A stretch of 64,000 nucleotides of DNA from Chloroflexota bacterium. Lineage in GTDB: Bacteria > Chloroflexota > UBA11872. The notes beneath the pieces are model-generated. The model made no database searches, was not told the origin of the DNA, and saw only the letters and a program-made list of their open reading frames with translations. The DNA lies in contig JAPOWQ010000041.1 of assembly GCA_026707585.1 (NCBI GenBank), forward strand, positions 91,154 to 155,153, written 5' to 3'. Positions 27,317-64,000 of this stretch are shown here, in pieces (positions within the stretch are counted from its first letter, which is position 1; each line of letters begins with the position of its first letter). Made by a program: the position numbers and the translations under genes.

Positions 27317-28552
27317 GTGATCGCTACGCATGACTCGACCACCCCGCCCACCCCCTTCCACCTGCTCATTCGCGGCGGCACCGTCATCGATCCGCAAGCG
27401 GGGCCTCCGCATACGGCCGACGTTGGCGTCAAGGACGGCCGCATCGCGGCCGTTGGCCCGGACTTGCGCGGGGACGCCGACGAAATTGTCGACGCCCGTG
27501 GCGCTTACGTCGTGCCCGGCCTCGTCGACTTTCACGTTCACGTGTACTGGGGCGCGACGATCTGGGGCCTGGAGGCTGACAAGATCGGCGCCGCCGGCGG
27601 AACCACCGCGTTCCTCGACACCGGTAGCGCCGGCGCCACCACCCTGGCGGGACTGCGCCGCTATGTGATCGAGCCCTCACAAACCCGCATCCGCGCGCTT
27701 GTGCACATCTGTACCGCCGGACTCGTGACAACTCTGGGCGAACTGCGCGACCCGCGCTACCTGGACGTTGATGGCACCGTCCGTGCAATTGATCAGAATC
27801 GGGACATCGCGCCGGGCGTCAAGATTCGGTACTCCGACACGATCGTCGGCCAGGGCGACCAGGCCAGGGCCGCGCTCGACGCGGCCATCGAGGCCGCGGC
27901 ACAGGCCGGCGTCTGGCTGATGGTGCATATCGGCTTCACGCCGGAACCCATCCCGGACATCCTGGGTCGCCTTCGGCCCGGCGATGTCATCACCCACAGC
28001 TACACCCCCTTGGCCGGCGGGCTGGTGGACCTGAGCGCCCGACAAATGCTGCCGGCCGTGATCGCGGCACGGGACGCCGGCATCGAGTTCGACATCGGCC
28101 ACGGCAAGAGCAGTTTTGGCTGGCACACGGCCCAGGCCGCCCTGGACTCGGGCTTCCCCCCGGACTACATCAGTTCGGACCTGCACCGCGGCTGCGTGCA
28201 CGGCCCCGCCTTCAGCCTCCCCAATGTGATGACCAAGTTCTGGCTGCTGGGGATGCCCCTGGAAGAGATCGTCGCGCGCTGCACCATCGCGCCGGCCAGC
28301 AAGCTCGGCCTCGACGCCGGCACCCTGCGCGTCGGCGCTGAGGCTGACATCGCGGTACTGGCGGTTGACGAAGGTCCGGTCACGCTGGTTGATTGCACGG
28401 GCGAGAAACGAACCTGGGACCGCCAGTTGCGGGCCGCCCACACCTTCCGCGCTGGGGTTCGCTTGGATCCCAAGGTGCTTGGACCCTCGGAGGAGTTGCC
28501 GGTCGAACTCTCGTCGCGCCCGATGACAAGCAGTTCCGGCAATTCAACCTAG
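27317..28552 (+). CDS. Amidohydrolase/deacetylase family metalloenzyme
   Basis: A 411-residue enzyme of the amidohydrolase superfamily, close in style to dihydroorotase-like and EF_0837-type deacetylases. It shows LLIRGGTVIDPQ, the metal motif GLVDFHVHVYWG, the likely carboxylated lysine in APGVKIRYSDT, metal His residues in LMVHIG and VITHSY, and the catalytic Asp in ISSDLHRG. A composite beta-sandwich is formed by both ends, with GTLRVGAEADIAVLAV near the C-terminus. It is cytosolic; the substrate is unknown. The start is GTG at 27317 with GGGGA upstream. Confidence 0.82.
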   Translation: MIATHDSTTPPTPFHLLIRGGTVIDPQAGPPHTADVGVKDGRIAAVGPDLRGDADEIVDARGAYVVPGLVDFHVHVYWGATIWGLEADKIGAAGGTTAFLDTGSAGATTLAGLRRYVIEPSQTRIRALVHICTAGLVTTLGELRDPRYLDVDGTVRAIDQNRDIAPGVKIRYSDTIVGQGDQARAALDAAIEAAAQAGVWLMVHIGFTPEPIPDILGRLRPGDVITHSYTPLAGGLVDLSARQMLPAVIAARDAGIEFDIGHGKSSFGWHTAQAALDSGFPPDYISSDLHRGCVHGPAFSLPNVMTKFWLLGMPLEEIVARCTIAPASKLGLDAGTLRVGAEADIAVLAVDEGPVTLVDCTGEKRTWDRQLRAAHTFRAGVRLDPKVLGPSEELPVELSSRPMTSSSGNST

Positions 28553-28608
28553 ATCCTGCTCACACCGGCGCGCCGTGCCAGACTGGCCAAACCGCGATTG
28601 GAGCGCAC

Positions 28609-30081
28609 ATGTCAACGCAGCCACCGATCCCCGCGCCGGAGTTTCCCGCAGGACTGGAATGGGCCAATACGCGGCGGCCGGTTCGCATGGCGGACCTGCA
28701 GGGCCGGCTGGTGATCCTGGACTTCTGGACGTTCTGCTGAATTAACTGCCTGCAGCTATTTCCGCAGTTGCGGAAACTCGAGGAAAAGCACGGTCCGGCG
28801 CTGGCGGTGGTGGGAGTGCACACGCCGAAGTTCCCGGCGGAGCGCGAGACGTTCAACGTGCGCTACGCGGCGCGGCGGCACCGCCTGGAGCACCCGGTCG
28901 TGAACGACCGGGATTTCCAGATCTGGCAGACGTACGGGGTGCGGGCGTGGCCGACGATGGTGTTTGTGGATCCGCTGGGGCACGTGATCGGGTTTCATTC
29001 GGGCGAGGCGCCATTCGAGGCGCTGGACCGGGCCGTGACGCGCATCCTGAACGAGCATCGGCCGAACGGCGTGGTGACGGACGCGCCGCTGGACGTGATG
29101 GAACAGGCGCCGGACTCGGACACGGGGCTGGCGTTTCCAGGGAAGGTGCTGGCGACCGCGGACCGCCTGTTCATTGCGGATTCGGGGCATCACCGGGTTA
29201 TCGAAACGGACCACGACGGCGCGGTGCGGCGGGTGTTTGGGTCGTCGGAGGAGGGGCATCGAGACGGAGCGGCCTCCGATGCGCGGTTTACGTATCCGCA
29301 GGGGGTGGCGGTGGTTGGCGACGACTTATATGTGGCCGATACGGAGAACCATCGGATTCGGCGGATAGACCTTGGGTCGGGCGGGGTGTCGACGGTGGCG
29401 GGAACGGGGGCGCGCGGGTATCCGGCGCCGGGGTCGCATCCGGCGCTGGCGGCGGAGCTGGCCTCGCCGTGGGACCTGGCGTGGCACGAGGGGCGGCTGT
29501 TCATTGCGATGGCGGGGATGCACCAGGTGTGGGTGATGGATCCGCCGGACGGGGTGGTTGGGCCGTATGCGGGGTCGGGGATCGAGAACCTGCAGGACGG
29601 GCCGCTGGACACGGCGCAGCTGGCGCAACCGAGCGGGCTGGCGGTGCACGGCGACCGGCTGCTGGTGGCGGATAGCGAAACGAGCGCGATTCGAACGCTG
29701 CCGCTGGACGGGCGCGGAGACGCGCGGACGATTGCGGGGGTTGGATTGTTCGACTTCGGGGATGAGGACGGGCAGGGGACATCGATTCGACTTCAGCACC
29801 CGTTGGGGGTGGCGGCGGGGACCGAGGGCGTGTTTATCGCGGATACGTACAACAACAAGATCAAGGTGGTGGATCCGGTCCAGCGGCTGATCACGTCGTT
29901 TGCCGGGGATACGGAGCACGGGGATGCGGACGGCGGGCTGGCAGAGGCGCGGTTTCATGAGCCGGGCGGGGTGTCGCTGGCGGACGGGGTGTTGTTTGTG
30001 GCGGATACGAACAATCACGTGGTGCGGCGGGTGGAGTTGGCTGCCCAGACCGTCAGCACGGTGGAGTTGAGCGGCCTCTAG
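28609..30081 (+). CDS. Thioredoxin-like plus NHL-repeat protein with in-frame UGA, probable selenoprotein (Sec44)
   Basis: The reading frame runs from ATG 28609 (GGAG at 28600-28603) to 30081, 490 codons, with one TGA at 28738-28740. Residues before it read LVILDFWTFC and after it INCLQLFPQLRKLEEKHG, so the UGA is at the first position of the redox C-x-x-C of a thioredoxin fold (C-U-I-N-C). The fold continues with GVHTPKF and the cis-proline RAWPTMVF. From about residue 165 come NHL repeats of a beta-propeller (FIADSGHHRVIE, YVADTENHRIRR, FIADTYNNKIKV, FVADTNNHVVRR). This architecture is that of NHLRC2-like proteins, which normally have WTYCCINC. A SECIS-like hairpin follows the UGA. If UGA were a stop, a 43-aa peptide and an orphan propeller frame lacking a start would result. 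It carries no signal peptide. A mutated or misread Cys codon is the alternative. Confidence 0.85.
28741..28776 (+). promoter_or_regulatory. Bacterial SECIS-like element after the UGA
   Basis: TTTCCGC at 28759-28765 pairs perfectly with GCGGAAA at 28770-28776 around an AGTT loop (28766-28769). The stem begins 18 nt and the loop 25 nt after the UGA. Bacterial SECIS elements have an apical loop about 16-37 nt after the UGA with a G among its first two bases, and both conditions are met. It would recruit SelB with Sec-tRNA. Only the upper stem is clear; pairing below it is interrupted. Confidence 0.7.
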
Positions 30082-30141
30082 ACAGATCAACCTGGGGCTC
30101 GCCAGCGGCCAAGAAGCTATCGCGTGTCGCCCCTGCTGCGT

Positions 30142-30147
30142 CTATTC
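30142..30147 (+). promoter_or_regulatory. Possible -10 element upstream of the DUF6159-like gene
   Basis: TATTCT near 30142-30147 lies about 40 nt before the start at 30186. It is in the gap after the thioredoxin-NHL gene. No clear -35 is present, so this is a weak call. Confidence 0.2.
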
Positions 30148-30185
30148 TTGAGCGGTCGATGCCGACACCCTGAGGACTACTACGA

Positions 30186-31040
30186 ATGTTCGCGACGTTT
30201 GGACGGACGTGGCAGCTCACGAAGATGAGCTGGGGCGTGTTGCAGAGCGATCGGAAGCTGATCGCGTTTCCGATCATGTCGGGCGTGGCGCTGGTGATCC
30301 TGGCGGCGCTGTTGACGGGCGTGGGGGCCGGATTCGGCACGTTCGAGCGGCTGGGCGCGGCGGAGACAGCCGGTCTGGCCGAGGCCGACATCGTGCTGCT
30401 GGGGATTACGTACTTCCTGCTGGCCTTCGTGATCATCTACTTCAACGCGGCGCTGATTGGGGCCGCGATGGTACGGCTGGCCGGCGGGACGCCGACGCTG
30501 GGCGACGGATTCCGGCTGGCGAATTCGCGACTGCCGCAGATCGCCGGCTGGGCGCTGATTTCGGCGACCGTGGGCTTGATCCTGCAGATCCTGCGCAATC
30601 AGTCGCGCGATAACTTCCTGGGGCAGATCGCGCTGTCCATCGTCGGCGGCGTGTGGGCCTATTTGACGTTCTTCGTGGTGCCGGTGCTGGTGGCCGAAGA
30701 GACGGGGCCGATCACGGCGATCAAGCGCTCGAGCTCCTTGTTCAAGCGGACCTGGGGCGAGCAGGTGGTGGCCAACTTCGGTTTCGGCATCGTTGGATTC
30801 CTGGCCGCACTGGTCGGGCTGGTACCCGCAATCCTGATCGCCTCGCTGTCGCCCATGGCAGGCCTGGTGGTTGGTGTGGTGACGGTGGGACTGGCGATTG
30901 CCACGGTTTCGACGCTGGAGGCGATCTTCAAGGCTGCCCTGTACGGCTACGTGGCCGACGGACGCGTGGGCGAGGGCTTCGAGCGCTCCACGCTGGAGGG
31001 CGCGTACGGACCAGGTCACGGCATGCAGCGCGGCTTCTGA
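30186..31040 (+). CDS. DUF6159-like polytopic membrane protein
   Basis: A 284-residue protein with about six hydrophobic membrane segments, for example IMSGVALVILAALLTGVGAG, ITYFLLAFVIIYFNAALIGA, LISATVGLILQIL and GFLAALVGLVPAILIASL. The N-terminal TFGRTWQLTKMSWGVLQSDRKLIAFPI and the central SSSLFKRTWGEQVVANFGFG are typical of the DUF6159 family, widespread in bacteria and archaea with no known activity. It stands alone on the plus strand between the selenoprotein candidate and an SDR. Confidence 0.75.
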   Translation: MFATFGRTWQLTKMSWGVLQSDRKLIAFPIMSGVALVILAALLTGVGAGFGTFERLGAAETAGLAEADIVLLGITYFLLAFVIIYFNAALIGAAMVRLAGGTPTLGDGFRLANSRLPQIAGWALISATVGLILQILRNQSRDNFLGQIALSIVGGVWAYLTFFVVPVLVAEETGPITAIKRSSSLFKRTWGEQVVANFGFGIVGFLAALVGLVPAILIASLSPMAGLVVGVVTVGLAIATVSTLEAIFKAALYGYVADGRVGEGFERSTLEGAYGPGHGMQRGF

Positions 31041-31929: not shown

Positions 31930-33418
31930 TCCGTGAGCGGCCGCCGAGCGGGGCTGCGTATGCTGGCCGGGCGGTCCGAGGTCGAGAGGTTCAGCCATGC
32001 CGTACGACCCTTCGCTACACCTGTTTTGTCACCCCTGGGAACTGCAGACGGTGGTGCATATGCGCCGGACCTGGAACCGGCCGGCGCGGGCGCAGATGGA
32101 TCCGGTGCTGGCGCCGACCGAGCCGTGGGAGGGTACGTCGGTGGCCTGGAGTACGGCGTTCTACGACCAGGAGACGGGGGTCTTCAAGCTCTGGTATGAG
32201 GCGTGGAATCCGGATCGCCCGGAGCCGCTGGATACGCCGGTCTGCTATGCCACGTCGACCGATGTCCTCACGTGGGACAAGCCGGAGCTAGGGGAGTTTG
32301 AGTGGGACGGGAGCCGGGCGAACAACATCTGCTGGATGATGCGGCGTGAGAGCGCGCCGTGGGACTACCTGGATAGTCCAAGGGTGTTCGTCGATCCGGA
32401 CGCGCCGGAGGCGGAGCGTTACCGGATGGTCATTTACGCGCGGGTTCAGGCCATTCGGCGGCACGCATTCTTCACGCTTACCAGTGCGGACGGGATGCAT
32501 TGGACGTGGCGTGACGAGCCGTTCCTGACCGAGAGCGGGGACCGATTTCACTGCATCTACGATGACCGGCGGGGCGAGTATTGGGTCACGTCAAGGCGCG
32601 CGCACATCGAACGGGACATCCGTTGGGACCCGCCCGTCCCGCGAATTCGCAGCGTGGAGCGCTGGCGCAGCCCGGACCTGCGTGAGTGGATCGGGCCGGA
32701 GATGCTGATGCGGCCGGACGACGCCGATCTGCCGGACACCGAGTTCTACAGCATGTATCCGATGACGGCCGGGAACGGGTACCTAGGCTACCTGGAGTTC
32801 TATGACCGGTTCGTGGAGCGCCTGCATACGGAGTTGGTGGTTAGCCGCGACGGGGACCACTGGCAGCGGCTGGAGCGGACGCCGTGGCTGGACCGCGGGA
32901 CCGAGGGCGCCTGGGATGACATGTGGATATTTCCGGCCAGCAACGACCCGCTGGTGGTGGGGGACCGGATGCTGGTGCCGTTTTGCGGCCGTGGCACGGC
33001 GCACGGCGGCCGGCGATACCGGATGCAGCCGGCGCGGTGCCGGATTGGGCTGTTGGAGTTCCAGCGCGATCGCTGGGCGGCGCTGACGGCCGGGCAGGAC
33101 GGTGGCGAGTTCGTGACCGAGCCGGCGGAAGTAACAGGCGACAGCCTGTGCCTGAACGTGGACGCGGAGTTCGGTGACGTGCGGGTGGCGGTGCTGGACG
33201 AGTATGGCGGGGTGCTGGAGGGGTTCGGCCACGCCGAGGCCGTGCCCATTGAACGCGACGCGATCGAGGCATGGGTTTCGTGGGACACGGGCGACTCCCT
33301 GGCGGCGTTGCGTGGCCGTCGCGTGCGGCTCCATGTCACGGCGGCGCGGGCCAGTGTGTACGGGTACAGATTCGGCTGAGGGCCTATTGACCAGCCGCCC
33401 ACTTGCAAACGCCTGAGA
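31921..33418 (+). repeat. Tandem duplication unit 1 (about 1.5 kb)
   Basis: The stretch begins CAGCGCTAGTCCG in the SDR stop region and holds a leader plus the first beta-propeller gene. The same start sequence recurs at 33419-33431, an offset of 1498 nt, followed by a similar leader, TATGCT hexamer and start context (GAGGTTCAGCCATGCC). The copies have since diverged. Confidence 0.75.
31997..33379 (+). CDS. Beta-propeller protein of the glycoside hydrolase family 43/32-like type, copy 1
   Basis: A 460-residue protein, without a signal peptide, resembling five-bladed beta-propeller glycosidases and related 'glycosyl hydrolase' proteins. Blade-like repeats are visible: FKLWYEAWN, VCYATSTDVLTWDKPELGEFEWDGS, FTLTSADGMHWTW, FHCIYDDRRGEYWVTSRR, and VVSRDGDHWQRLERTPWLD. 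Several conserved acids occur but the catalytic triad cannot be assigned. It could hydrolyse or bind a sugar polymer. A paralogue of equal length and high similarity follows; the leader sequences of the two copies are also alike. Confidence 0.7.
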   Translation: MPYDPSLHLFCHPWELQTVVHMRRTWNRPARAQMDPVLAPTEPWEGTSVAWSTAFYDQETGVFKLWYEAWNPDRPEPLDTPVCYATSTDVLTWDKPELGEFEWDGSRANNICWMMRRESAPWDYLDSPRVFVDPDAPEAERYRMVIYARVQAIRRHAFFTLTSADGMHWTWRDEPFLTESGDRFHCIYDDRRGEYWVTSRRAHIERDIRWDPPVPRIRSVERWRSPDLREWIGPEMLMRPDDADLPDTEFYSMYPMTAGNGYLGYLEFYDRFVERLHTELVVSRDGDHWQRLERTPWLDRGTEGAWDDMWIFPASNDPLVVGDRMLVPFCGRGTAHGGRRYRMQPARCRIGLLEFQRDRWAALTAGQDGGEFVTEPAEVTGDSLCLNVDAEFGDVRVAVLDEYGGVLEGFGHAEAVPIERDAIEAWVSWDTGDSLAALRGRRVRLHVTAARASVYGYRFG

Positions 33419-34874
33419 CAGCGCTAGTCCGCGGACGGCCGAGCGCGGCTGCGTATGCTGGCGGGGCGGTTCGCGGTCGCGAGGTTCAGCCATGCCGTAC
33501 GACCCTTCGCTGCATCTGTTCTGTCACCCGTGGGAACTGCAAACGGTGGTGCACATGCGCCGGACCTGGAACCGTCCGGCGCGGGTGCAAATGGCGCCGG
33601 TGCTGGCGCCGACCGAGCCCTGGGAAGGCACGTCGATCGTGACCTGGGGCACAGCCCACCGCGACCCGGAAACGGGGCTTTTCAAGCTCTGGTACGAGGC
33701 CTGGAATGCCGAGCGTCCGCATCCGCTGGTCTCGCTGGTCTGCTACGCGACGTCAACCGACGGCGTGACCTGGGACAAGCCGGACCTGGGGCTCTTCGAG
33801 TGGGAGGGCAGCCGCGCGAACAACATCTGTTGGATGATGCGAGAAAGCGCGCCCTGGGACTACCTGGACAGTCCGCAGGTGCTCGTCGATCCGCAGGCTC
33901 CGGAGTCGGAGCGCTATCGGATGGTGATTTATGCGCGGGTGGCGGCCATTCGGCGGCACGCGTTCTTCGTATTGACGAGTTCCGACGGGATCCATTGGAC
34001 GTGGCATGACGAGCCGTTTCTGACCGAGACGGGGGACCGGTTTCACTGCATCTATGACGACCGGCGCGGCGAGTACTGGTTGACCTCGCGACGCGCGGAC
34101 CTGGACAAGGACTTTGCGGCGGACCCACCGATCCCTCGAATCCGCAGCGTGGAGCGCTGGCGCAGCCCGGACCTGCGCGACTGGTCGGGTCCCGAGATGC
34201 TCATGCGGCCGGACGACGCGGACCCGTTGGACACCGAGTTCTACAGCATGTACCAGATGACGGCCGGGAACGGCTACCTGGGGTACCTGGAGTTCTACGA
34301 CCGGTTCGTGGAGCGCCTGCACACGGAGCTGGTCGTGAGCCGCGACGGGGACCATTGGCAGCGGCTGGAACGGACGCCGTGGCTGGACCGGGGCACCGAG
34401 GGCGCCTGGGATGACATGTGGGTGTTCCCGTCCAGCAACGACCCGCTGGTGGTGGGGGACCGGATGCTGGTGCCGTTTGGCGGGCGCGGGACGGCGCACG
34501 CCGGACGGCGCTACCGGATGCGGCCGGCGCGCTGCAGCATTGGCCTGCTCGAGTTCGGGCGCGACCGCTGGGCGGCGCTGACGGCGGGGCAGGACGGCGG
34601 GGAGTTCGTCACCGAGCCGGCGGAGGTCACCGGCGACCACTTGTGCCTGAACGTGGACGCGGAGTTCGGCGACGTGCGGGTGGCCCTGCTGGGTGAGTAT
34701 CGCGGGGCGCTGGAGGGATTCGGCCACGACGACGCTGTCCCGATCGAATCCGATGCGATAGCGGCGCCGGTTCGGTGGACATCGGGCAACGCGCTGTCGT
34801 CTCTTCGTGGCCGTCGCGTGCGGCTGCACGTCACGGCGGCGCGGGCCAGCGTGTACGGCTACAGGTTCGACTAG
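33419..34874 (+). repeat. Tandem duplication unit 2
   Basis: Second copy of the unit at 31921-33418. It begins with a remnant of the SDR end (CAGCGCTAGTCCG), showing that the copied block started inside the SDR gene. It then carries the leader and the second beta-propeller gene. Sequence similarity to unit 1 ends close to the stop codon at 34874. Confidence 0.75.
33492..34874 (+). CDS. Beta-propeller protein of the glycoside hydrolase family 43/32-like type, copy 2
   Basis: A 460-residue paralogue of the preceding gene, beginning with the same MPYDPSLHLFCHPWELQTVV and collinear to the end (ARASVYGYRF). Most differences are conservative and scattered, for instance RRADLDKDFAADPPIP against RRAHIERDIRWDPPVP; the most variable part is near residue 435, where charged residues differ. 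Both copies keep a full reading frame, so both are probably expressed. The leader before the ATG is duplicated too, including TATGCT near 33454-33459, a possible -10. The substrate is unknown. Confidence 0.7.
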   Translation: MPYDPSLHLFCHPWELQTVVHMRRTWNRPARVQMAPVLAPTEPWEGTSIVTWGTAHRDPETGLFKLWYEAWNAERPHPLVSLVCYATSTDGVTWDKPDLGLFEWEGSRANNICWMMRESAPWDYLDSPQVLVDPQAPESERYRMVIYARVAAIRRHAFFVLTSSDGIHWTWHDEPFLTETGDRFHCIYDDRRGEYWLTSRRADLDKDFAADPPIPRIRSVERWRSPDLRDWSGPEMLMRPDDADPLDTEFYSMYQMTAGNGYLGYLEFYDRFVERLHTELVVSRDGDHWQRLERTPWLDRGTEGAWDDMWVFPSSNDPLVVGDRMLVPFGGRGTAHAGRRYRMRPARCSIGLLEFGRDRWAALTAGQDGGEFVTEPAEVTGDHLCLNVDAEFGDVRVALLGEYRGALEGFGHDDAVPIESDAIAAPVRWTSGNALSSLRGRRVRLHVTAARASVYGYRFD

Positions 34875-62686: not shown

Positions 62687-64000
62687 ATGACCGGCCGGCA
62701 GCGATTTGCGGTGCTGGCCCTTGTAGTTGGGGCCGTGATCGGCGCCATCGCGCTGATTGAGATCATCGTATCGCCGCCCGACCCCACGGTTGGCGTCGGC
62801 CTGCCCGGCGCAAACGACACCCAAACGGCCGCTCCTGCTCGCGAGACTCCCGCTTCTACCCGGGCCGTAGTAGCGGCGACCGTCGCGACCACGCCTCCCG
62901 TGGCGGCTACTGCCGCCGCGGCTGCGGCCGGTGGAGCCGCCGGCCAGCCAACGGCCGCGCCCGCGCCGGCCACGAGCGCGCCAACAGTGGCGACCAGCGG
63001 TCCTGCTCCTGTCACCAGCGCACCCACGCCGGTCCCAACCACACCAGCCGCGGTCGTCGTAGACCTCCCCGAGCTGCCGGTCATTGGCTTCGCGCCGGAA
63101 TTCGCGGGCATCACCGCCTGGCTCAACAGCGAAGTGCTAACGATGGACGACCTGCGAGGTCGTCCGGTCTTGATCGACTTCTGGACGTTCGGCTGCATCA
63201 ACTGCATCCGCACCCTGCCCCACGTCCGCGCCTGGCACGACGCCTACGGCCCGCACGGACTGGTTGTCGTCGGCGTGCATACCCCGGAGTTCCGGCACGA
63301 GTACGAGGAAGAAAACGTGCGCGAGTCGCTGCCCTCCCGCGGCGTCATTTGGCCGGTGGCCATGGACAACGACTACAAGACCTGGCGCGCCTACAACAAC
63401 CGCTTCTGGCCCCATAAATTTCTGATCGACCAGCAAGGGCGCATCCGCTATCACCACATCGGCGAAGGCGCCTATCAAGAAACCGAAAAGGCAATTCGCG
63501 CGCTGCTGGCCGAAGGCGGAACGGATCTCTCGCACATCCCGCTTTCCAGCGCGTCAATCCCTCGCAAGACGACCCCTTCGCCGTCCACCGGTCCTCGGTC
63601 ACTCTTTGCGGGAAGCGGATTTGCTTTCGGCTCCTACCTCGGCAATCCCACCGAGGCGCCTGGGGACGGTGTCCGACTTTTTACCGATAACGTCGACCAC
63701 AACAAGGAGGGCATCTATCTGGACGGGCGCTGGGCCTGGTCACCTAACGCCGCGCTGGCGCAGCCCGATTCCAGCGAGTCCTCGCGTCTGACCATTGTCT
63801 TTCAGGCGACGGAGGTCTCCGCCTCCTTTGGTGCAAGTAGTGAGGCGCCGATACGCGTGCCGGTCACCGTCGATGGGTCGCCAATCCCGGCCGACCGGCG
63901 CGGCGGGGACATCGTGGCCGCTGCCGACGGCCGGACGTACGTGGAGATCGGCCAGTTTCGGCTCTACGACATTCTTCGGAACGGCGCGGAACGCGGCGGC
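62687..64000 (+). CDS. TlpA/DipZ-type redoxin with Cys-Ile-Asn-Cys site (3' end beyond window)
   Basis: The frame is open for 438 codons to the window edge, so the gene is incomplete. A signal anchor (FAVLALVVGAVIGAIALIEIIV) is followed by about 100 residues of Ala/Thr/Pro-rich linker, then a thioredoxin-like domain with VLIDFWTFGCINCIRTLPHVRAW and GVHTPEFRHEYEEENV. A C-terminal domain (from about GFAFGSYLGNPTEAPGDGV) resembles the carbohydrate-binding-like tail of DipZ/redoxin proteins. It should be an extracytoplasmic thiol oxidoreductase. The Cys of FGCINC aligns with the UGA at 28738 in the thioredoxin-NHL gene, which supports the selenocysteine reading there. Confidence 0.87.
   Translation, partial: MTGRQRFAVLALVVGAVIGAIALIEIIVSPPDPTVGVGLPGANDTQTAAPARETPASTRAVVAATVATTPPVAATAAAAAAGGAAGQPTAAPAPATSAPTVATSGPAPVTSAPTPVPTTPAAVVVDLPELPVIGFAPEFAGITAWLNSEVLTMDDLRGRPVLIDFWTFGCINCIRTLPHVRAWHDAYGPHGLVVVGVHTPEFRHEYEEENVRESLPSRGVIWPVAMDNDYKTWRAYNNRFWPHKFLIDQQGRIRYHHIGEGAYQETEKAIRALLAEGGTDLSHIPLSSASIPRKTTPSPSTGPRSLFAGSGFAFGSYLGNPTEAPGDGVRLFTDNVDHNKEGIYLDGRWAWSPNAALAQPDSSESSRLTIVFQATEVSASFGASSEAPIRVPVTVDGSPIPADRRGGDIVAAADGRTYVEIGQFRLYDILRNGAERGG

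What the first reader, a model, noticed from the sequence alone, without database searches (positions are those of the whole stretch)
28609..30081. Probable selenocysteine in a thioredoxin-NHL (NHLRC2-like) protein
One in-frame UGA (28738-28740) interrupts a 490-codon frame exactly at the first redox position of the thioredoxin CxxC site: WTFC-UGA-INC. Protein similarity, NHL repeats and frame continue directly after it. NHLRC2-type proteins normally read C-C-I-N-C here. I do not recall this family being described as a selenoprotein in this architecture, so it may be a new selenoprotein family member.
Basis: partly seen in the sequence, partly recalled or inferred. Interest (0 to 1): 0.95.

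Follow-up and report, generated by a model that had tools for sequence, protein, structure and literature searches.

The report
Selenocysteine thioredoxin–NHL redox protein
A bacterial relative of the human disease protein NHLRC2 and the plant protein SOQ1 has a UGA codon exactly at its redox-active cysteine, followed by a conserved RNA hairpin and in a genome that carries the selenocysteine genes, so the UGA is likely read as selenocysteine; this would be a widespread selenoprotein family that the inventories I read do not name, and it points to which cysteine in the human and plant proteins is likely to do the chemistry.

Summary
Confirmed. One in-frame UGA (28738-28740) sits at the first redox position (U-I-N-C) of a 490-codon thioredoxin-NHL frame. 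The genome has SelA, SelB, tRNA-Sec (anticodon UCA) and a SelD that itself contains a UGA. In a 400-genome sample of the phylum, 57 of the 77 genes covering the thioredoxin domain have exactly one stop, always UGA, at this column; 20 have none, and the 19 of these that I could read have Cys. A capped scan of named genomes gave 117 such frames (partly the same genomes) with titles from several phyla. All 7 pairs form in 107 of 140 distinct regions (3.7 expected from synonymous recoding), with compensatory changes, and in 0 of 19 Cys genes. Sec and Cys forms alternate on the tree; an NC10 clade has its own hairpin. The predicted fold is that of human NHLRC2 and plant SOQ1; NHLRC2's chemistry is unsettled. 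The 119-entry selenoprotein table I read names no thioredoxin-NHL family, but generic 'redoxin' and 'Trx-like' entries could hide members. Sec incorporation is not shown by experiment.

The parts
28609..30081 (+). Trx-NHL gene, 490 codons read through UGA, ATG start, TAG stop
   Evidence: homology to SOQ1/NHLRC2; 12 of 13 genus genomes carry it
28600..28603 (+). GGAG, likely ribosome-binding site 5 nt before the ATG (by eye)
   Evidence: sequence
28738..28740 (+). UGA codon 44, predicted selenocysteine, N-terminal redox position of U-I-N-C
28759..28776 (+). SECIS-type hairpin: 7 bp stem (28759-28765 with 28770-28776), AGUU loop 28766-28769, 25 nt between UGA and loop
   Evidence: covariation; synonymous-recoding control; counts
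28735..28737 (+). Cys43, first Cys of the CCINC-type motif; Ala or Gly in some Sec and Cys relatives
28747..28749 (+). Cys47, predicted resolving residue of UxxC
   Evidence: sequence; nearly invariant in A3
28951..28953 (+). Pro115 of AWPT, likely the cis-Pro facing the active site (equivalent of NHLRC2 Pro163, inferred)
   Evidence: invariant in A3; PMC6107167 passages
28633..28986 (+). Thioredoxin-like domain (PF00578 residues 9-126; PF13905 residues 32-125)
   Evidence: model pLDDT
29116..30078 (+). NHL beta-propeller (residues 170-490)
   Evidence: PF01436; fold matches

Best explanation
The UGA at 28738-28740 is likely decoded as selenocysteine by SelB and tRNA-Sec at the conserved hairpin just downstream, giving a full-length thioredoxin-NHL protein whose predicted catalytic pair is Sec44 and Cys47. 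Shown here: the UGA at the redox column, its conservation, the covarying hairpin, the Sec machinery genes, Cys in the other relatives that were read, and a predicted fold that matches NHLRC2 and SOQ1. Inferred: that Sec is inserted, and that the selenolate of Sec44 attacks a disulfide or other oxidised group of a partner held in the cleft between the thioredoxin and propeller domains, with Cys47 resolving the mixed selenide-sulfide. Cys43 would be accessory, because relatives with Ala or Gly there keep U/C44 and C47. The substrate and the reductant are unknown.
Against: No protein-level proof. A fold of 63 nt from the UGA in the window alone is no better than shuffles and does not choose the conserved hairpin (z 0.15). 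No Rfam family matches. 21 of 141 distinct regions form fewer than 6 of the 7 pairs in this register; of the 12 outliers I folded, several have shifted or different hairpins. 4 of 19 Cys genes form 6 pairs. SelB does not separate Sec from Cys genomes: 54 of 57 Sec genomes and 18 of 20 Cys genomes have it (read by eye from the tables). Human NHLRC2 showed no activity in an insulin reduction assay, and its authors took this as a hint against thiol-disulfide exchange (PMC6107167 passages). Neighbouring genes give no functional hint: the commonest neighbour family occurs in 15 of 104 loci.
Confidence: 0.92

Rival explanations
1. The UGA is a real stop: the gene is broken, or it is two genes, and the 437-residue part is made from a TTG start after the UGA.
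For: Public protein predictions of the closest relatives are short (P0002-P0008, 424-441 aa), and the six of them that I aligned start at residue 54, after the UGA. A TTG-started ORF 28768-30081 exists.
Against: A start after the UGA would lack the first strands and the active-site residue of the thioredoxin fold. Matches in the phylum begin at residues 1-8, before the UGA, in 57 of 57 UGA genes, the 12-20 residues before the UGA look alike across titles from several phyla, third-position changes dominate on both sides of the UGA in 10 of 10 orthologues compared, and 57 of 57 phylum TGAs are at the same column.
Confidence: 0.03
2. The UGA is decoded as cysteine or tryptophan through a changed code or a variant tRNA, not as selenocysteine.
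For: Cys is the residue in homologues; variant UGA-reading tRNAs are known in some bacteria (recalled, from no call).
Against: 14 of 35 long open frames picked in the window end in TGA, a tRNA-Sec with SelA, SelB and SelD is present, and the downstream hairpin would be left unexplained. I did not search the whole genome for a tRNA-Cys or tRNA-Trp with anticodon UCA.
Confidence: 0.03
3. The gene is a selenoprotein, but one already counted under a generic name such as 'Redoxin family protein' (UxxC) or GOS 'Trx-like 1' (COG0526, UxxC), so only the domain architecture is unreported.
For: Those entries share the UxxC motif and broad domain IDs. Several carriers have SAR202 titles, a marine group, and short reads would not show the NHL part (recalled).
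Against: The word NHL does not occur in the main text of seven selenoprotein surveys. The one Prx-like 3 fusion described in the GOS passages that I saw has a partner with a conserved CxxC, unlike this propeller. I could not retrieve the representative sequences HEU0032618.1 and MBA3499694.1.
Confidence: 0.3

Closest known systems
Human NHLRC2 (PDB 6gc1) and plant SOQ1 (7djj; 7djk is a mutated form)
   Different: Those have Cys where this has UGA; both have extra domains (PMC6107167 passages), this protein ends after the propeller
UxxC thioredoxin-fold selenoproteins of bacteria (Trx, thiol-disulfide isomerase-like, Prx-like, redoxin family; PMC13188914 Table 1)
   Same: UxxC motif, bacterial Sec insertion
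   Different: None is listed with an NHL propeller; this protein scores far below the NCBIfam cut-offs of thioredoxin, ResA and TlpA
DipZ C-terminal thioredoxin (2hyx) and the DipZ-like paralogue in this window (62687-64000)
   Same: Related thioredoxin domain, (S/G)CINC motif
   Different: The paralogue keeps Cys (WTFGCINC) and has a Thioredoxin_10 match instead of NHL in the part inside the window

Membership tests
Bacterial selenoprotein gene | In-frame UGA aligned with Cys of homologues | tested here: met
Bacterial selenoprotein gene | UGA conserved in independent genomes | tested here: met
   57 of 77 phylum genes covering the Trx domain; 117 of 119 contig stretches, partly the same genomes
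Bacterial selenoprotein gene | SECIS-type hairpin shortly after the UGA, with a G in the first positions of a small apical loop (criterion recalled) | tested here: met
   AGUU loop 25 nt after the UGA, covariation; bSECISearch not available; single-sequence fold not supportive
Bacterial selenoprotein gene | SelA, SelB, SelD and tRNA-Sec in the same genome | tested here: met
Bacterial selenoprotein gene | Sec present in the protein | not testable with these tools
   needs mass spectrometry or 75Se labelling
NHLRC2/SOQ1 thioredoxin-NHL family | Thioredoxin-like domain with CC(I/V)NC motif | tested here: met
   Met with U for the second Cys: C-U-I-N-C
NHLRC2/SOQ1 thioredoxin-NHL family | NHL propeller next to the thioredoxin domain | tested here: met
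   PF01436; match to 6gc1 and 7djk over both domains
NHLRC2/SOQ1 thioredoxin-NHL family | Shared biochemical function | not testable with these tools
   function of NHLRC2 itself unsettled (PMC6107167 passages)
Single-domain thioredoxin / ResA / TlpA | Score over the NCBIfam cut-off | tested here: not met
   ResA 48.9 against 170, TlpA 26 against 230, thioredoxin 22.8 against 96.8
Reported 'Redoxin family protein' selenoprotein | Same family as HEU0032618.1 / MBA3499694.1 | not tested
   no tool here fetches those records

The most novel reading that the evidence does not exclude
A large selenoenzyme family that no list I read names: most thioredoxin-NHL genes found in the phylum sample are the Sec form, Sec was gained separately at least once more (NC10, with its own hairpin) and exchanged with Cys many times. 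It marks the second and third cysteines of CCINC as the redox pair, so human NHLRC2 and plant SOQ1 are true thiol oxidoreductases with a partner held in the Trx-propeller cleft.
Probability: 0.5. Interest if true: 0.8.

Novelty: new member of a known kind. Interest (0 to 1): 0.66.

Why it matters
NHLRC2 is an essential protein, mutated in the fatal FINCA disease (abstract), and did not reduce insulin in the classical assay, so whether it is a redox enzyme is open (PMC6107167 passages). Sec is costly and is placed mostly at catalytic redox positions (established knowledge). Finding it repeatedly at exactly one cysteine of this family says that the position is likely catalytic and names the pair to mutate and trap. 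It also means that current predictions cut these proteins short: the closest entries start after the UGA.

Tried and rejected
One search used an accession recalled wrongly (PF01904 is DUF72) and tells nothing here. The 63-nt fold of the window alone and the Rfam scan of 28000-30500 gave no support for a SECIS; the comparative tests did. SelB presence as a discriminator failed, since most genomes of the phylum sample have it (306 of 400 over the cut-off). Gene neighbourhood gave nothing (103 contig loci of 4 kb or more plus the window: best family in 15 of 104; a DUF255/YyaL-like thioredoxin protein, named from recall, in 14 of 104). The downstream codon comparison with L033 was dropped because of a one-codon length difference. 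From the pattern hits, L097 and L109 were dropped as non-coding. L199, a gene without internal stop, was not read by my motif search. My motif search required the last Cys of UxxC, so its constancy is built in; A3 shows it as nearly invariant without that condition. The 34 regions of A2 were chosen by me from the 174 Sec loci, plus-strand ones and nearly all in this register; searches use all distinct regions. The tree used every second usable Cys protein and left out short or duplicate rows; several long branches meet there. The smaller tree (59 rows chosen by me) rejects one clade of all Sec rows (p-AU 3.3e-37), which also follows from Cys reversions and does not by itself prove separate gains. 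The VIA-align list barely tests the thioredoxin part beyond 6gc1 and 7djk.

Papers: PMC13188914 passages and section 7 parts 1-2 of 3; passages only of PMC12013277, PMC9312934, PMC2398784, PMC1088965, PMC1794560, PMC5029168, PMC6107167. Haft and Tolstoy 2025 (PMC12013261) was not held; I saw only its entries in PMC13188914 Table 1. That the architecture is not in print rests on the search listings and on these tables and passages; the library lacks most subscription journals.

Full report
Observation. Window 28609-30081 (+) is one frame of 490 codons with a single internal stop, TGA at 28738-28740, at codon 44. The motif reads WTFC-U-INC. By sequence residues 7-488 match plant SOQ1 (E 7e-110) and human NHLRC2 (E 2.4e-102), which have CCINC there (PMC6107167 passages). 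Pfam finds a thioredoxin-like domain and NHL repeats. The start has GGAG five bases upstream (by eye).

Machinery. The genome that holds the window (G000, 3.92 Mb, 95.6% complete) has SelA at 435 bits, SelB at 332 bits, over the family cut-off, SelD at 370 bits with one TGA of its own, in the context GAGUACK, and a tRNA-Sec with anticodon tca.

Conservation of the UGA. In the same genus 12 of 13 genomes have the orthologue with exactly one TGA; G007 (76% complete) lacks it, and the 6 genomes of the sister genus have only distant thioredoxin-domain or propeller matches. In a sample of 400 genomes of the phylum, 80 match at E 1e-60: 57 with one TGA, 20 without a stop, 3 without the thioredoxin part; no listed match has TAA or TAG. 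All 57 TGAs lie at the redox column. Of the 20 stop-free genes 19 could be read by the motif and have Cys there. The phylum is taken to be Chloroflexota because genus member G018 has a chromosome of 3,002,743 bases, the length of OY282448.1, 'uncultured Chloroflexota bacterium'. By record title they are 84 Chloroflexota, 10 Thermomicrobiota, 6 Rokuibacteriota, 4 Methylomirabilota, 2 each Acidobacteriota, Actinomycetota, Armatimonadota and Planctomycetota, 1 Nitrospirota, 1 Bacillota, 3 unassigned. Some titles of assembled genomes may be wrong or contaminated, and the scan sees only the motif WT(F/Y)C-U-INC.

Coding constraint. Between the window gene and 10 genus orthologues (L023-L032) the differences lie mostly at third codon positions, before and after the UGA. 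Public predictions of the nearest proteins are 424-441 aa (P0002-P0008), and the six of them that I aligned start at residue 54, after the UGA, so they are annotated short.

Hairpin. Starting 21 nt after the first base of the UGA there is a stem of 7 base pairs with an AGUU loop, 28759-28776. On 34 aligned regions (33 distinct; chosen by me) 97.0% of cells pair, 21 cells have changes on both sides, and the covariation score is 0.359 against 0.175 in shuffles (0 of 500 as high); sliding the partner by 1-3 columns drops pairing to 72.3% or less. Over all 141 distinct Sec regions 120 form at least 6 pairs and 108 all 7, while of the 19 Cys genes none forms 7 and 4 form 6. For the 140 regions without an ambiguous base, random synonymous recoding with each gene's own codon use would give 3.7 with all 7 pairs (107 seen) and 11.8 with the AGUU loop (126 seen). 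The Leu codon in it is TTG in 135 of 141, against 540 of 5418 other Leu codons of the genes and 7 of 19 in the Cys genes. These rows are related, so the counts are not independent, but the gap is large. The motif used to find the loci ends before the stem, so it did not select for it. The exceptions are informative: Thermomicrobium-type genes shift the stem by one base with a GUU loop, and an NC10 clade has a different hairpin. Against this, a single-sequence fold of the window and Rfam show nothing.

Evolution. On a tree of 202 rows Sec and Cys need 11 changes, of which strongly supported branches force 6; on 59 rows with a better model 8, of which 5 are forced, and one clade of all Sec rows is rejected. 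The NC10 Sec rows (L071, L112, L166) sit among Cys rows. With their different hairpin this suggests a separate gain of Sec (inference). SelB does not explain which genomes use Sec: 54 of 57 Sec genomes have a match at E 1.9e-78 or better (the 3 misses are 77-83% complete), and so do 18 of 20 Cys genomes (read by eye).

Novelty. The 2026 inventory of 119 prokaryotic selenoprotein families and subfamilies (PMC13188914, Table 1 read) names no thioredoxin-NHL family, and the word 'NHL' does not occur in its main text or in that of six other selenoprotein surveys. Generic entries with UxxC ('Redoxin family protein', 'Trx-like 1') may include members; I could not fetch their sequences. So this is a new member of a known kind, selenoproteins with UxxC, with wide spread and a direct bearing on an unsolved disease protein.

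Noticed in passing
31997-33379 and 33492-34874 (+): Two adjacent open frames of 460 aa that start alike and cluster in one family, with no Pfam match: likely a tandem duplication of an unknown protein.
   Followed up: partly
62687-64000 (+): DipZ-like redoxin with a Thioredoxin_10 match and WTFGCINC; it keeps Cys at the position where the Trx-NHL gene has UGA.
   Followed up: partly
L019 (G000:C49:11963-12889): SelD of the same genome is itself a predicted selenoprotein (GAGUACK).
   Followed up: partly
L071, L112, L161, L145, L166: NC10/Methylomirabilota-type genes have the same UGA but a different downstream hairpin, e.g. CCAGAG/CTCTGG stem in L071; L171 (Planctomycetota title) may be another separate case. 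L161 bears a Nitrospirae title.
   Followed up: partly
L077, L118, L143, L148, L167, L168, L177: Genes with U-INC-HHNV (HQNV in L177), under Acidobacteria, Planctomycetota, Chloroflexota and unassigned titles; the three that I folded (L077, L118, L143) have a longer-looped or bulged hairpin.
   Followed up: partly
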